From Candidatus Jettenia sp. (GTDB lineage: Bacteria > Planctomycetota > Brocadiia > Brocadiales > Brocadiaceae): DNA of 64,000 nucleotides. The stretch lies in NCBI GenBank assembly GCA_021650895.1, contig CP091278.1, positions 1,641,659 through 1,705,658 of the forward strand, in the 5' to 3' direction. The translations under genes and the position numbers were made by a program. The notes beneath the pieces were generated by a model that saw nothing but the letters and a program-made list of their open reading frames with translations, ran no database searches and was not told where the DNA came from. Below, in pieces: positions 5 to 18,374 of the stretch (the first letter of the stretch is position 1; the number at the start of each line of letters is the position of its first letter).

Positions 5-3000
5 CTTTCATTGAACCTATAAGGAATTGAAACCGAGGAACGGCATTAGAATATTAGCGCGGGGGCGAGCTTTCATTGAACCTATAAGGAATTGAAACGG
101 TAGATGCGAAAAGCTGCTGTTGGCCAAACAATACCTTTCATTGAACCTATAAGGAATTGAAACGAAATACAAACAATATAAAACCGTAAAAAGAATTTAT
201 CTTTCATTGAACCTATAAGGAATTGAAACGTTTGGCTTTCAGGGATACGTAATCAGCAATAAGGCTGCTTTCATTGAACCTATAAGGAATTGAAACAGCA
301 ATAACAGGATATATGCGGCTAAGGCGGCAAGCTTTCATTGAACCTATAAGGAATTGAAACCTGTTTGGGCGTTTTTTATTATAATAGGTAGGGGTTCTTT
401 CATTGAACCTATAAGGAATTGAAACTTTATCGACACAATTAACTCCAATTTCATAAACTTTCTTTCATTGAACCTATAAGGAATTGAAACACAATAAGAT
501 CATAGTTACCTAAGAAAACTAAAGAGCCTTTCATTGAACCTATAAGGAATTGAAACGAATATGTTGTACGTGCTCAGCGTCGTTCAATGCTTCTTTCATT
601 GAACCTATAAGGAATTGAAACAAGTGTATAAGCGTCTGAGTACGGATGCGAGGAAATCTTTCATTGAACCTATAAGGAATTGAAACACAACAACAGAAGA
701 TACAGAGCGAAAAGCATACCCTCTTTCATTGAACCTATAAGGAATTGAAACGAGCCTTGCCTGATCTTTGTCGATCAGCAAGTTCTCTTTCATTGAACCT
801 ATAAGGAATTGAAACATCTCACTTTCTTCATTATTTATCTCTCCTTTCTCGTCTTTCATTGAACCTATAAGGAATTGAAACGCAGGAACCGTATAGAATC
901 ATATGGATTGTTAGACTTTCATTGAACCTATAAGGAATTGAAACTTGTAGCCTTGTACAAGAAATATAAAAATAATCCCCTTTCATTGAACCTATAAGGA
1001 ATTGAAACGAGAGAATGAACATTGGTTTTTCGTCCAGATCGTCCTTTCATTGAACCTATAAGGAATTGAAACCGGTAAAACAAACTGCTTTCTTGCTTCT
1101 CAATCAACTTTCATTGAACCTATAAGGAATTGAAACGTTTAAGATTACAGCGCCAAAGGTGGTGTACCGGAACTTTCATTGAACCTATAAGGAATTGAAA
1201 CTCTTCATCATCGTATACTTTTCGATAAACGCCTTCACCTTTCATTGAACCTATAAGGAATTGAAACTAGCCCTTACACAGGAGCAGAAGGAAAGCAGGA
1301 TACTTTCATTGAACCTATAAGGAATTGAAACAGCTGTGGGAGCTACCGGTATGGCTGTGTTATCGTACTTTCATTGAACCTATAAGGAATTGAAACGCAG
1401 ATACACCTCTGTCTTATCCGCCAGGTAGTTCTTTCATTGAACCTATAAGGAATTGAAACAGAAAAGTTTTAAAATTATATCGGGGTATTTCTCAACTTTC
1501 ATTGAACCTATAAGGAATTGAAACGGGATGCGAAAAATGTGATAGGGGTGTGATTTCATCCTTTCATTGAACCTATAAGGAATTGAAACAGAAATCATTT
1601 GCATATGATTTCTTGCTATACGTGACTTTCATTGAACCTATAAGGAATTGAAACACCTTATAGGGGGTGGGGGTATGCGCAACTACACAACTTTCATTGA
1701 ACCTATAAGGAATTGAAACGCAAAATCAAGGCATACAAGGCTATTTTAAAATAATCTTTCATTGAACCTATAAGGAATTGAAACAGGATAACGTTGGTAT
1801 TCACCACACTAACCCCTCTGCTTTCATTGAACCTATAAGGAATTGAAACTCGTACCTGATTTTAAGGGCAAACCTATCGTACTCCTTTCATTGAACCTAT
1901 AAGGAATTGAAACATGGACTGGCAAACGGTATCTTCACGGTATCCACCCCTTTCATTGAACCTATAAGGAATTGAAACTGAACCCCGTTTGCAAACCGAA
2001 AAGCATCGCTTGTGCTTTCATTGAACCTATAAGGAATTGAAACATAAGTTCATGTTAATATCTTAGGTCTAGATTTTCTTTCATTGAACCTATAAGGAAT
2101 TGAAACATCTTCCCCATTTTCGTCGATTGGTATCGTCCTCATTCTTTCATTGAACCTATAAGGAATTGAAACCTCACAGTGCATGTGTGAGAGGAGCTTT
2201 GTCTTATTCTTTCATTGAACCTATAAGGAATTGAAACCCATACTGATCGATATAAAACCTTCGCCGCTCCTCCTTTCATTGAACCTATAAGGAATTGAAA
2301 CGAGCTTTTTATCTGAATCAGTAATGCCTGTTTGACTTTCATTGAACCTATAAGGAATTGAAACTGCTATTACTGATGCATTTTCCCTTGCTACTACTGC
2401 CTTTCATTGAACCTATAAGGAATTGAAACGGAGAAAGCGACATCTTCAAAGAACCGACATAAATCTTTCATTGAACCTATAAGGAATTGAAACGTTATTT
2501 TTTCTTATATCTTTATGAAGGCTTGTTCTCTTTCATTGAACCTATAAGGAATTGAAACTAATTATTGACAGGCTAATGACTTATACAAAAGCCACTTTCA
2601 TTGAACCTATAAGGAATTGAAACTCTGAATTTAATATTTGTAAGAGGCGTGTTAGTGATCTTTCATTGAACCTATAAGGAATTGAAACGGGATATTTTGC
2701 TTACCGCAAGAAAAGCTCTTCAGCTTTCATTGAACCTATAAGGAATTGAAACTGATTTTTCGATTGTTTCCTTGTCAGCATAGAGAATCTTTCATTGAAC
2801 CTATAAGGAATTGAAACAGCCGTCAAGCTTGATTACCTGTCCAAGAATCCTTGTCTTTCATTGAACCTATAAGGAATTGAAACCGGGACTGCCTCCATCA
2901 CCGGCTTTTAACGTAATTCTCTTTCATTGAACCTATAAGGAATTGAAACGAAGAAAGGTTTAGCCGGTCCACTTCCGGTTGATGTCTTTCATTGAATCTA

Positions 3001-4434
3001 TAAGGAATTGAAACTTTTTACTCCTTGTTATTCTGGCAGCGATAAAGTCTTTCATTGAACCTATAAGGAATTGAAACAGTTTTTGCATACCCATCAACGT
3101 CTGATAATATATCCTTTCATTGAACCTATAAGGAATTGAAACAAGCAAAATTAAGTGCAAGTTCGGTAACTTCTGCACTTTCATTGAACCTATAAGGAAT
3201 TGAAACGGAGCTATTGCAGGATACGCAACAAGTGGTGGCGTTCTTTCATTGAACCTATAAGGAATTGAAACGACTAAACAGGGCAACTGCTTATACGGTA
3301 GATGAGCCTTTCATTGAACCTATAAGGAATTGAAACGGATGAAATCACACCCCTATCACATTTTTCGCATCCTTTCATTGAACCTATAAGGAATTGAAAC
3401 ATGGGATGGGTATCCCATTCGGATGGGATGGTAATGGGCTTTCATTGAACCTATAAGGAATTGAAACCGGCAAATTGAATACCTGTTTGAAAGTGGCCGT
3501 CTGACTTTCATTGAACCTATAAGGAATTGAAACGGTGAGCAGAGGGGAATTTCGATCTTTCTACAATCTTTCATTGAACCTATAAGGAATTGAAACTCGG
3601 TACTGGTAACAATGTCCAGGGTTCCGCATCCCTTTCATTGAACCTATAAGGAATTGAAACATGGATCCGGTCGTTTCTTTTTGTTTTCGCTCATACTTTC
3701 ATTGAACCTATAAGGAATTGAAACAACGAAACGAGAGGTATTGTGCTTATTGGCAATCAACTTTCATTGAACCTATAAGGAATTGAAACATTTTTCTCCA
3801 ACAGTGATTTCTATACCCATATTTCTACTTTCATTGAACCTATAAGGAATTGAAACGGATTATTGATGTTCCTGGCGATGCAGGCACAATTACTTTCATT
3901 GAACCTATAAGGAATTGAAACGCGGGTACCTGGGTGCGGAAAACGGCGGGTATCAGCTTTCATTGAACCTATAAGGAATTGAAACTTTGTTGTATGTTAG
4001 TCTCTACAGAGGGGTTAAAACTTTCATTGAACCTATAAGGAATTGAAACTGGTAAGGAACATCATGCCAGGTGTTTCATTATTGTCTTTCATTGAACCTA
4101 TAAGGAATTGAAACTATGTTGTATGAGCAAAAAAGAAAGTATCAGCGTTCTTTCATTGAACCTATAAGGAATTGAAACTCGATGAAAAAAGGCGAGTCGT
4201 CAGACTACAAGGCACTTTCATTGAACCTATAAGGAATTGAAACGAAAAATAATTAAGTTTCCTACTATCGCAGAGCTTCTTTCATTGAACCTATAAGGAA
4301 TTGAAACCGGATTACCCCCATCACTGATTGCAACCGCAGCCCTTTCATTGAACCTATAAGGAATTGAAACGGGCAACATCGGGTCAACGCAGTATAACCG
4401 GTTTACTTTCATTGAACCTATAAGGAATTGAAAT
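5..4434 (+). CRISPR. CRISPR array, 69 repeats / 68 complete spacers visible, continuing past the left edge
   Basis: A 29-base direct repeat, beginning CTTTCATTGAACC and ending AAGGAATTGAAAC, recurs 69 times with unique spacers of about 34-38 bases. Positions 1-4 are the end of a further spacer, so the array continues left. The repeat ends in ATTGAAAC, the usual 8-base crRNA 5' tag of type I-A/I-B and type III systems, so transcription is inferred to run on the plus strand and the leader should lie left of the window. The last repeat (4406-4434) has its final C changed to T, as expected of the old trailer end. One internal repeat (2986-3014) carries a C-to-T change. No cas genes are in the window, so the subtype is undetermined. 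Short open frames across the array are only repeat translation. Confidence 0.99.
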
Positions 4435-4803: not shown

Positions 4804-5820
4804 TTAATTCATGGTATCGTATATTTCCGTTTTTCGGCTTGTATGAGTTTGATTTTCATGTAAATAACAGTACCCATCAGGATTCTTCGTCTTATTCTTA
4901 CATCTCTTACCAGACTTAGTTACGCTTTTGCATTGCATCACCGCCGTACTTGATTTCCCTACAATATCTGATTTATCGAATCTCCAATTCTTGAGATTTA
5001 ACGTTGATTCGATAAGCTCTTCCTGCTCATCAGGAAGAAGATGAAAAAAATCAATTCCTGTTAACTTTTCAATGTTATCAATCGTTAAAGCATATTTTTG
5101 TAATGATTCATTTGATCTCATATTCGGAATAACAAAACCAATACCCTTAATATCGGGCTCTCTATAATCTAAAATTATCTTATAAAAATATTTCGGTACG
5201 GAAACTTTATTTTTGCCAATGATAGGCAAACCTTTTTTCAAAACAGGACCAGTAACAATATATATTGACCGATTATCCCTTGCCCATTGCCTGACCAACT
5301 CTTCTAATTTTTTCCAAATTCCTCTGTTAAAACCAGGCTCTTGCGGACTAATATTACTATAGTAAAATGATTCCCGCATTGCTACTGACGACCATGCCAT
5401 ATCACCAGCGGGCGCTAAATGACCTTTATCATAACCAAGTCCCTTGTAATCCTTATCATCTGCCGTTTGCCTTTTAACCCTAAGATCAGGAATAAACTTA
5501 TCAGACCTCTCATACATGGCATAGGTCTCTTCTCTCGTTAATTCATAAGCAACCCAACTTGCTTGTTCATGCTCTTCGTTATAAGAAAGGATAAATGCTG
5601 AATAGGTAAGTATTTCATCATTTTGAGTGCATTTTGGAATTTCTAAATGTTGGATAATCCGTGGTTTTAGATTGCAAAGAGGCTCCTTTACCAAACAAGT
5701 GTGAGCTTTATTCCCGCGAGCAAGAGTTTCTTCTTGCACAGAAGGATTACTCATAATAAATAAAATCAAGATACATAAGAGGGTAATGGTTTTTATCGTT
5801 TTTGTTGAATAAGTTCTCAT
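4804..5820 (-). CDS. Secreted DNA/RNA non-specific endonuclease with C-terminal Cys/His motif
   Basis: Predicted extracytoplasmic sugar-non-specific nuclease of the NucA/EndoG beta-beta-alpha-metal family. The 338-residue product starts with a basic stretch and hydrophobic segment (about residues 8-24), a signal peptide or anchor. The catalytic block GYDKGHLAPAGDM (129-141) carries the general-base His134 in a DKGH variant of DRGH, and Asn165 in FNRGIW is the likely metal ligand. After the nuclease domain a short tail has Cys297, Cys307, Cys318 and His321, resembling the small DUF5763-type putative zinc motif. The ATG at 5820 is preferred because GGGAAG lies just upstream; a TTG four codons earlier is possible. 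It sits beside the CRISPR trailer, but nothing in the sequence shows a functional link. Family call firm; role (nutrient scavenging or defence) unknown. Confidence 0.9.
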   Translation of the reverse strand: MRTYSTKTIKTITLLCILILFIMSNPSVQEETLARGNKAHTCLVKEPLCNLKPRIIQHLEIPKCTQNDEILTYSAFILSYNEEHEQASWVAYELTREETYAMYERSDKFIPDLRVKRQTADDKDYKGLGYDKGHLAPAGDMAWSSVAMRESFYYSNISPQEPGFNRGIWKKLEELVRQWARDNRSIYIVTGPVLKKGLPIIGKNKVSVPKYFYKIILDYREPDIKGIGFVIPNMRSNESLQKYALTIDNIEKLTGIDFFHLLPDEQEELIESTLNLKNWRFDKSDIVGKSSTAVMQCKSVTKSGKRCKNKTKNPDGYCYLHENQTHTSRKTEIYDTMN

Positions 5821-6450
5821 AGTTCTTCCCAAATAAAGTTAGTGTTCTAAGTTTTTAATATTCCTGGTACCCACAGTAATATATGAATAATCCAAAGGAG
5901 TTGATTACTTCGGGATTACCCTATTATTAAGAAACTGTCTTTTACCTTTTGACTGATTATGGTCCTCTTAATTTTCCCTTATCAGCAGTAGGCAGAATTT
6001 TTTAGAAAATCAGAGGAGAAGAGGAGGATATCCACCCTGTAAGATAGAAAGCTTATCGGGTAGCAATTTTCTAGTAGGGTAAAGGGAATATCTTCTACCG
6101 ATTTTGGATAATTACGGAATAACTACCTTTTATAGAAAAGTTGGCTCGCAAAGGAGTATCGAAAAATATGTGAGATGGTTGAAACACTGAACTGTGATAG
6201 GATGAGGGTTTGAACTGGCAGATATTGATTGTTGCACAACGAAAAATACTGGGATGCAAGCACACACATGGTGAGAAACAAAAAAAACAAGACTGCCTGT
6301 ATCCTGGATTCGATGAGATGATGAGGATGAGATTCGGATTGATTATAAATATTGATAATCAAAACAGGCCTGTGCTGAGTAGGATATGCTTTAATAAAAT
6401 AATTCTTTATACTATAACACAGAGCTGCCGTTATCAAATGTTTACGTCTC
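5821..6450. other. Intergenic region without a recognised gene
   Basis: About 630 bases between the divergently read upstream side of the nuclease gene and the end of the thioesterase gene. Open frames exist on both strands near 6120-6490 but they overlap each other, have no family features and no convincing ribosome binding site. I see no tRNA or strong repeat here. Confidence 0.5.
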
Positions 6451-16409: not shown

Positions 16410-18374
16410 TTAATGATGTCCAGGAACAGGTTTACACTCCCTTTCCAATGCTCTTCGTTCTGCCATATCATAGAGTTTTCTCTCTTTTGCCGTGTTTATA
16501 CCAAGCGCATCTCTCTTTTTCTCTATGTGATCCATCATCATCCTGCCTATCTTCTTCAGATCACGCTCGAAATCCCATCGCGCACCAACCATATCTTCCA
16601 TCTCTTTGGTTAATAACCTTTGCATATCGGGCGCACCAGCTACCGGAGAATTCATGCCAAAGACGATATAAATACCAGATGCTACAAAATACTGACCAAT
16701 AGCAATTGCCTTTTCGCTCATCCATTCCAAACATGCACCGGCAACCGGCAAATCACTAATATCGTTTCCTAAACCGCCTTCTTTTGCCATTTCAGAACAG
16801 GCTATCAAAATACGGCTATTATCGACACAGGCACCGGAATGAAGGACAGGTGGTATACCTACCGCTTCACAAACTTCCCGGAGCCCTTTACCGCATTCAT
16901 CTTTTAATTCAGGGATCATCAATCCACCGGAAGCGCATTGCCCCGCAGCACAACCCGTCGCCACTACTAATATGTTGTTGGCTATGAGTTCCCTTACCAG
17001 ATTTACGTAGTTCTGGTCACATGCGCCTGCCCTGGGGCTTGTACAACCGGCAATTCCCACAACACCGCGAATCCTTCCGTTTATGATATTATCGTTCAAA
17101 GGACGGTAACTTGCACGAAACCTGCCGCCTAACATATATTTAATTGTCTCATGGCTAAAACCAGCGATAAGGTTCGGCTCGGCACTACTCGGAATAAACA
17201 CCTTATTATTATCGCGGTTTTTATAGTTATCGATAGCCATCATAATAATCTTCTTTGCTGCTTCGAGGGCATGCTCATCGGTAAACTCTACATGTTCCGC
17301 ACCATCAATCTTTGCCTTTGATAAGGTCGTAACAAGCTTTGTATGGAAGTGCTTTGCAGTTTCAGCTAAAGCCTGCATCACACATTGTATATCAACAACC
17401 ATCAACTCCACCACACCAGTCGCTATAGCACCCTCCTGTATGGTCATATGGCCGGCCATAGGAATTCCATGCCGGACAAGAAGCTCGTTTGCAGTACAAC
17501 ACAGACCAGCAATCACAAGACCTTTTGCCCCCGTTGCATGTGCCGCTTTTATGACATCCGGATCACCCGAAGCAAGGACGATGGCTTCGGCAAGCTGAGG
17601 TTCATGCCCGTGAACAACGATATTTATATGGTCTTTTTTCATAACACCTAAGTTTGATCTTCCCTGTACAGGCTTCGGCGTACCGAACATAATATCCTGC
17701 AGTTCGGTTGCTATCATACAACCACCCCAACCATCCGCTAACGCCACGCGCATGGACTGCTTGGTAAGGTTCCGATAGTCCTGATCACCGCCCATCCCTG
17801 TTCGGTGCAAACTCTCAGTAACCTCACGGTCAATTGCTCTGGGCGCAATGCCTAATTTTTCCCATATCTTTTGACGCGCTTCCGGCGCCCTTTTAAGGAA
17901 CAACAAAGTACCATAGGGTTTTCCAAACTCCATTAATGCCATCTCGCCAACTTCTTCAGCGATTTCATTTATCTTGCGATCCTTTGTCTTCACACCAAAA
18001 CACTCAGCAACCATCATAAGTTTATCCACATCTTTAATACGGTAACCTGGTGCTTCACCCCTTGCGGTAGCAACTAAAAGGTGAGCTGCGGCACGCGCAT
18101 GGTCAGAGTGGCATGCAGTGCCAGCACCATTCATACGAAGATAATGCCGGGCCGCAAAGGTATTAGCATCAGCTCCGCAAACACCTTTCTTTGGTCCATT
18201 TCCAAAAGGATCGATATTGCATGGTCCATAGTTACAATGACGACAACACAATGCGAGGCTACCATATCCACACTGAGGAAGCTGGGCCTGGTATCTGTCA
18301 TACATGGTTTCTACTTTAATTTCTTTCATCCGATCAAGCATTACCTGATCCACTGTTTTTTGTTTTTCTTCCAT
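16410..18374 (-). CDS. acsA: Nickel-iron carbon monoxide dehydrogenase catalytic subunit (AcsA/CooS)
   Basis: Reduces CO2 to CO for acetyl-CoA synthase, or oxidises CO. The 654-residue protein has the N-terminal cysteine array for the D and B clusters (Cys35, Cys43, Cys44, Cys47, Cys52, Cys66 in CGYG, CCRHCNYGPC and GVCGADA) and the HSDHAR helix. Further on are GLCCTANELL, GIAGCTSPRAGACDQNY, ATGCAAGQCASGG and HSGACVDNSR, which supply C-cluster and proton-relay residues. The start is the ATG at 18374, because GGAGGA sits seven bases upstream inside a longer open frame. It is directly upstream of acsB, and a cooC precedes it. Confidence 0.96.
   Translation of the reverse strand: MEEKQKTVDQVMLDRMKEIKVETMYDRYQAQLPQCGYGSLALCCRHCNYGPCNIDPFGNGPKKGVCGADANTFAARHYLRMNGAGTACHSDHARAAAHLLVATARGEAPGYRIKDVDKLMMVAECFGVKTKDRKINEIAEEVGEMALMEFGKPYGTLLFLKRAPEARQKIWEKLGIAPRAIDREVTESLHRTGMGGDQDYRNLTKQSMRVALADGWGGCMIATELQDIMFGTPKPVQGRSNLGVMKKDHINIVVHGHEPQLAEAIVLASGDPDVIKAAHATGAKGLVIAGLCCTANELLVRHGIPMAGHMTIQEGAIATGVVELMVVDIQCVMQALAETAKHFHTKLVTTLSKAKIDGAEHVEFTDEHALEAAKKIIMMAIDNYKNRDNNKVFIPSSAEPNLIAGFSHETIKYMLGGRFRASYRPLNDNIINGRIRGVVGIAGCTSPRAGACDQNYVNLVRELIANNILVVATGCAAGQCASGGLMIPELKDECGKGLREVCEAVGIPPVLHSGACVDNSRILIACSEMAKEGGLGNDISDLPVAGACLEWMSEKAIAIGQYFVASGIYIVFGMNSPVAGAPDMQRLLTKEMEDMVGARWDFERDLKKIGRMMMDHIEKKRDALGINTAKERKLYDMAERRALERECKPVPGHH

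What the first reader, a model, noticed from the sequence alone, without database searches (positions are those of the whole stretch)
1525..3371. Two CRISPR spacers are reverse complements of each other
Spacer 1525-1560 (starting GGGATGCGAAAAATGTG) and spacer 3337-3371 (starting GGATGAAATCACACCCC) are exact reverse complements over 34-35 bases, with ends offset by one or two bases. The same protospacer was captured twice, in opposite orientation, 27 spacers apart. That argues against strict strand selection at uptake. If the effector cuts RNA only (type III), just one of the two can act. The offset ends also reveal one or two flanking bases on the 3' side of each protospacer (C and CC).
Basis: seen in the sequence. 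Interest (0 to 1): 0.6.

Follow-up and report, generated by a model that had tools for sequence, protein, structure and literature searches.

The report
Same phage site captured both ways
An anammox bacterium's 334-spacer CRISPR memory holds the same snippet of presumed phage DNA twice, once in each direction, which is an ordinary result for a DNA-targeting type I-B system that takes its snippets beside a short CC motif on either strand.

Summary
Spacers at window 1525-1560 and 3337-3371 are exact reverse complements over 34 nt, with 27 spacers between them. The window holds only the old end of the array: 335 identically oriented repeats and 334 spacers lie downstream of a type I-B cas operon (Cas6-Cas8b-Cas7-Cas5-Cas3-Cas4-Cas1-Cas2). 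This is a DNA-targeting system, not type III, so both spacers can act if each has a PAM. A third spacer (no. 79) is a diverged copy of the site, oriented like the 3337 spacer and with the same 5' end. Its seven differences are all synonymous, so the target encodes GCEKCDRGVISS and was captured at least three times independently. A prophage in a sister species matches 19 of the array's spacers (14 on one strand, 5 on the other), and with a second region of that genome fixes the PAM as 5'-CCN (18 of 23). The best reading is a protospacer bracketed by CCN on both strands, 37 nt apart. PAM-directed sampling predicts about one such pair in an array this size, and a related array has another. The target itself was not found, so a "flipped" integration remains a rival. 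Ordinary biology; modest interest.

The parts
1525..1560 (+). Spacer 290 of 334 (window spacer 24): sense orientation of the target ORF; frame +2 reads GCEKCDRGVIS
3337..3371 (+). Spacer 318 of 334 (window spacer 52): reverse complement of spacer 290 over 34 nt; antisense to the target ORF
5..4434 (+). Trailer (old) end of a type I-B CRISPR array: 69 of 335 repeats (CTTTCATTGAACCTATAAGGAATTGAAAC) and 68 of 334 spacers. The array begins at genome position 1624392, about 17.3 kb upstream of the window. The last repeat (4406-4434) ends in T instead of C.
1137..1172 (+). Spacer 284: matches the prophage of the sister species (G016) with 4 mismatches and 5' flank CCG; supports the CCN PAM
2238..2272 (+). 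Spacer 301: matches the prophage terminase gene with 1 mismatch and 5' flank CCG; homologous terminase sites in several IMG/VR contigs also carry CCA or CCG
4371..4405 (+). Spacer 334 (oldest): matches a prophage tail gene with 2 mismatches and 5' flank CCT

Best explanation
[quoted passage not shown] The Cas4-Cas1-Cas2 machinery anchors the 5' end of each spacer next to a 5'-CCN PAM and trims the other end loosely (34-39 nt). Here a CCN most likely lies just outside the 37-nt site on both strands (CCN-37-NGG), so the same duplex can be captured in either direction. Both crRNAs would direct Cascade/Cas3 against the same double-stranded DNA, one pairing with each strand. Shown: the pair, the third capture (no. 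79), the I-B operon, the CCN PAM, capture from both strands of a prophage, and the expected frequency. Inferred: the CCN on both sides of this particular site, the phage origin of the target, and activity of both crRNAs.
For: Exact 34-nt pair. I-B operon upstream of the leader. Spacer 79 is a diverged copy with the same 5' end as 318; all 7 of its differences from the site are third-position and synonymous. PAM: 18 of 23 prophage and element matches have CC at -3/-2 (binomial P about 4e-18; zero control hits), and overlapping spacers independently reveal CCT (55/68), CCG (51/252) and CCA (relative G008, spacers 5/10). The prophage is hit on both strands, 14 and 5. 5' ends are fixed and 3' ends vary in 31/47/165 and 79/318. 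In the prophage and a second region of the G016 genome, 5-9% of PAM sites have an opposing PAM exactly 37 nt away. Simulated PAM sampling for 334 spacers gives 0.5-1.25 full-length opposite pairs for 120-400 kb of target DNA. The same thing occurs in a related array (G006 spacers 43/63).
Against: The actual protospacer was not found in IMG/VR, GenBank phages, 33 family genomes or GTDB contigs, so the CCN on both sides of this site is not seen directly. Spacers against the prophage lean to one strand beyond PAM availability (14 of 19 where 29% is expected, P = 6e-5; several are neighbouring spacers and not independent), so sampling is not perfectly strand-neutral.
Confidence: 0.82

Rival explanations
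1. Flipped integration: one of the two is a mis-oriented insertion of a prespacer that has a PAM on one side only. Spacer 290 is the likelier flipped one, because 79 supports the orientation of 318.
For: Flipping of prespacers is documented in type I systems (PMC5059440). The ends of 290 fall within 1-2 nt of the ends of 318.
Against: The reported rate is below 0.5% of spacers in a type I-F system (PMC5059440). With about four same-site capture pairs in this array it predicts about 0.04 such pairs, against 0.5-1.25 for two-sided PAMs.
Confidence: 0.1
2. The target carries the sequence twice as an inverted repeat, and each copy was sampled once.
For: Not excluded, because the target genome is unknown.
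Against: The site is protein-coding, with only synonymous divergence, which is unusual for one arm of an inverted repeat. No second copy is needed to explain the data.
Confidence: 0.05
3. Assembly or recombination artefact: a duplicated or inverted piece of the array.
For: The array is long and repetitive, and a tandem identical pair exists elsewhere in it (82/83).
Against: All 335 repeats share one orientation, neighbouring spacers differ, and each spacer has end bases absent from the other. Spacer 79 shows the site was captured independently.
Confidence: 0.01
4. Type III (RNA-targeting) array in which only one spacer works.
For: A Cmr2/Cas10 gene is present in the genome at 3200480.
Against: An array of a different 36-nt repeat lies about 14 kb from that Cmr2 gene. 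This array adjoins a complete I-B effector operon and shows a strong PAM. 13 of 19 prophage-matching spacers are sense to the mRNA and could not bind it.
Confidence: 0.02

Closest known systems
Type I-B CRISPR-Cas with CCN PAM (Clostridioides difficile, PMC8406132; CCN listed for I-B in PMC8482600)
   Same: Same effector gene set with Cas4; 5'-CCN PAM at acquisition; variable spacer length; spacers taken from both DNA strands
   Different: Host is an anammox bacterium; the array is very long (334 spacers); cas1 is frameshifted in this assembly
Large type I-B CRISPR locus of 'Ca. Kuenenia stuttgartiensis' (PMC7709395)
   Same: A large I-B array in an anammox bacterium, growing at the leader end
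   Different: The large loci there hold roughly 80 spacers or more each; in the passages read, neither a PAM nor opposite-strand spacer pairs were reported
Flipped spacers and priming in Pectobacterium type I-F (PMC5059440)
   Same: The same sequence could enter in either orientation
   Different: Flips there are rare errors (<0.5%); here a PAM on both sides suffices

Membership tests
Type I-B CRISPR-Cas | Cas8b, Cas7b, Cas5b, Cas3 and Cas6b effector genes in one operon beside the array | tested here: met
   PADLOC hits Cas6b 4.8e-52, Cas8b 8.8e-20, Cas7b 1.9e-41, Cas5b 5.5e-55, Cas3b 1.5e-205 at L010:6495-14970
Type I-B CRISPR-Cas | Cas4-Cas1-Cas2 adaptation genes | tested here: met
   Cas4, Cas2 and Cas1. 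Cas1 is split by a one-base frameshift relative to two congeners, which are open there.
Type I-B CRISPR-Cas | 5' PAM of a known I-B type (CCN) | tested here: met
   18 of 23 protospacers with CC at -3/-2, no 3' motif, no control hits
Type III CRISPR-Cas | Cas10 beside this array, no PAM, antisense bias | tested here: not met
   No Cas10 found in the operon; the Cmr2 match is at 3200480, about 1.6 Mb away; strong PAM; 13 of 19 sense to the mRNA
Flipped-spacer acquisition error | PAM present on one side of the protospacer only | tested here: inconclusive
   Protospacer of 290/318/79 not found in any collection
Two-sided PAM protospacer (CCN-N37-NGG) | CCN immediately outside both 5' ends | tested here: inconclusive
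   Predicted from the PAM and the 37-nt spacing; not seen directly

The most novel reading that the evidence does not exclude
Opposite-strand spacers in one array pose a natural self/non-self test. crRNA 290 perfectly matches 34 nt of the DNA (and of the array's own pre-crRNA) at spacer 318, and vice versa, but with the leader-side end of the repeat as flank (GAA and AAA in the PAM position) instead of the usual tag-derived flank. Such pairs could mark arrays whose crRNAs are kept away from the co-resident III-B complex, or could make the two crRNAs anneal and silence each other.
Probability: 0.08. Interest if true: 0.5.

Novelty: new member of a known kind. Interest (0 to 1): 0.27.

Why it matters
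The pair shows from sequence alone that this I-B system draws spacers from both strands. With spacer 79 it marks one conserved phage-like coding site sampled at least three times as its sequence drifted. The follow-up gives a CCN PAM and a targeted prophage for an uncultured anammox lineage, which makes its host-phage links searchable. The pair also offers a clean natural case for asking how a crRNA avoids a reverse-complement spacer in its own array.

Tried and rejected
(1) 55 IMG/VR contigs matched a 20-mer of the thrice-captured spacer 31. They share only 22-23 nt of one conserved gene and not the rest of the spacer, so this is a chance match. (2) Exact and degenerate searches for the 290/318 target in IMG/VR, 33 family genomes and GTDB contigs found none; the 8 GTDB hits read in the wrong frames or contexts. 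(3) GenBank phage searches gave only background. (4) The G016 prophage, its second targeted region and 17 related IMG/VR contigs lack the GCEKCDRG motif. (5) Overlapping pairs 236/329, 71/314 and 260/305 share 13-14 nt and are at chance level.

Full report
WHAT WAS CHECKED. Window 1525-1560 is GGGATGCGAAAAATGTGATAGGGGTGTGATTTCATC and 3337-3371 is GGATGAAATCACACCCCTATCACATTTTTCGCATC. They are reverse complements over 34 nt, with one and two extra bases at the ends. Among all 334 spacers the next-best opposite-strand exact match is 19 nt (127/130), and beyond that sharing falls to 11-13 nt, the chance level.

THE ARRAY. The window cuts a much longer array. The genome (one contig, 3.82 Mb, with hydrazine synthase, hence an anammox bacterium) holds 335 repeats in one orientation at 1624392-1646092. 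The low-coordinate end carries the leader and the cas operon; the window holds the trailer end, where the only two variant repeats lie. The finding's spacers are nos. 290 and 318 counted from the leader, so 318 is the older. The operon reads Cas6b-Cas8b-Cas7b-Cas5b-Cas3-Cas4-Cas1-Cas2, which is type I-B. A III-B Cmr2 gene lies elsewhere, with an array of a different repeat about 14 kb away. A further array of a third repeat lies near another cas1.

A THIRD CAPTURE. A mismatch-tolerant comparison of all spacers found that no. 79 (CGATGAAATCACCCCTCTATCGCATTTCTCACAGCC) is a diverged version of the same site, with the same 5' end and orientation as 318. Read on the strand of 290, both versions encode GCEKCDRGVISS, and all seven differences fall in third codon positions. 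The target is therefore a protein-coding site under purifying selection, sampled at least three times (twice antisense, once sense) and from at least two target lineages.

PAM. A prophage in a congeneric genome (G016:C3, about 1656000-1692000; primase, integrase, terminase, portal, scaffold, tape-measure and tail genes) matches 19 of the array's spacers at up to 9 mismatches, 14 on one strand and 5 on the other. A second region of that genome adds 4 more. Of these 23 sites, 18 have CC at -3/-2. There is no motif on the 3' side, and reversed control spacers gave no hits (binomial P about 4e-18). Overlapping spacers independently reveal CCT and CCG in this array, and CCA in the related G008 array. 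The PAM is 5'-CCN, a published type I-B PAM (PMC8406132, PMC8482600).

WHY BOTH ORIENTATIONS. Repeated captures share exact 5' ends while their 3' ends vary by a base or two (31/47/165 and 79/318). The 5' ends of 290 and 318 are 37 nt apart on opposite strands. The simplest reading is CCN-37 nt-NGG. In the prophage and a second region of the same genome, 9% and 5% of plus-strand CCN sites have an opposing CCN at exactly this spacing. A simulation drawing 334 spacers from CCN sites of 120-400 kb of target DNA predicts 1-4 same-site pairs (observed 4, without the tandem 82/83) and 0.5-1.25 near-full opposite pairs (observed 1 exact, 2 with spacer 79). A related array in another genus (G006) has its own opposite pair (43/63), with two further diverged captures, 26 and 125, of a site encoding SAWACDPCGENH. 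No special strand rule is needed. The alternative, a flipped insertion, occurs at below 0.5% in Pectobacterium and predicts about 0.04 such pairs here.

STRAND BIAS. Capture is not strand-strict, but matches to the prophage favour the strand that is coding for most of its genes beyond PAM supply (14 of 19, 29% expected, P = 6e-5). Several are neighbouring array entries (177, 178, 180-183), which looks like primed acquisition, so the events are not independent. Thirteen of the 19 are sense to the mRNA, so there is no sign of selection for RNA targeting.

SELF-TARGETING (sequence reading, inference). The crRNA of each spacer matches the other's DNA. The bases in the PAM position are GAA (290 on 318) and AAA (318 on 290), neither of them CCN, so type I interference should not be triggered. 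If III-B complexes used these crRNAs, the array transcript itself would be a target.

LIMITS. The protospacer itself was not found in any collection available here, so the two-sided PAM is a prediction.

VERDICT. A correct and well-spotted observation, with an ordinary explanation.

Noticed in passing
Genome 1622573-1623564 (L010:17573-18564), outside the window: The cas1 gene of this I-B locus is split by a one-base deletion (TATTATCCCGCGAA against TATTATCCCCGGGAA and TATTATCCGCGAGAA in two congeners, which are open there). Either acquisition at this array is dead or it is a sequencing error.
   Followed up: partly
Array spacers 31, 47 and 165 (genome 1626363, 1627399, 1635061): One protospacer captured three times in the same orientation, with unrelated neighbours and a one-base length difference in one copy; target unknown.
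   Followed up: partly
G016:C3:1681031-1681972 (L129:6031-6972): A minor-tail-protein-like gene in the sister species' prophage is matched by six spacers of this array (181, 182, 183, 237, 284, 334), from the oldest to mid-array: a long-lasting target.
   Followed up: partly
G016:C3:1656000-1692000 (L128, L129): Matching spacers favour the mostly-coding strand far beyond PAM availability (14 of 19 where 29% is expected, P = 6e-5), partly from runs of neighbouring spacers that suggest priming.
   Followed up: partly
G006 array (L103), spacers 26, 33, 43, 63, 125: Five spacers in a related genome's array hit versions of one coding site (SAWACDPCGENH, a CxxC motif) in both orientations. The 290/318/79 site also encodes a CxxC motif.
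   Followed up: partly
L010:7522-7986 and 17000-17497, inside the cas operon: Two 23S-rRNA-intervening-sequence/bAvd-like four-helix proteins lie between cas genes, the second overlapping the end of cas4.
   Followed up: no
window 4804-5832 (-): A DNA/RNA non-specific endonuclease (Endonuclease_NS, 6e-56) with a DUF5763 tail is the first gene after the old end of the array.
   Followed up: no
Genome 582143-582457 and 1877131-1877445: Two hydrazine synthase alpha (PF18582) matches with the same score but in open frames of different length (826 and 549 aa): a duplicated, perhaps truncated, key anammox gene.
   Followed up: no
Array spacers 82 and 83 (genome 1629676-1629774): Two adjacent identical spacers, either a tandem slip of the array or back-to-back capture; a similar adjacent pair (130/131) is in the G006 array.
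   Followed up: no
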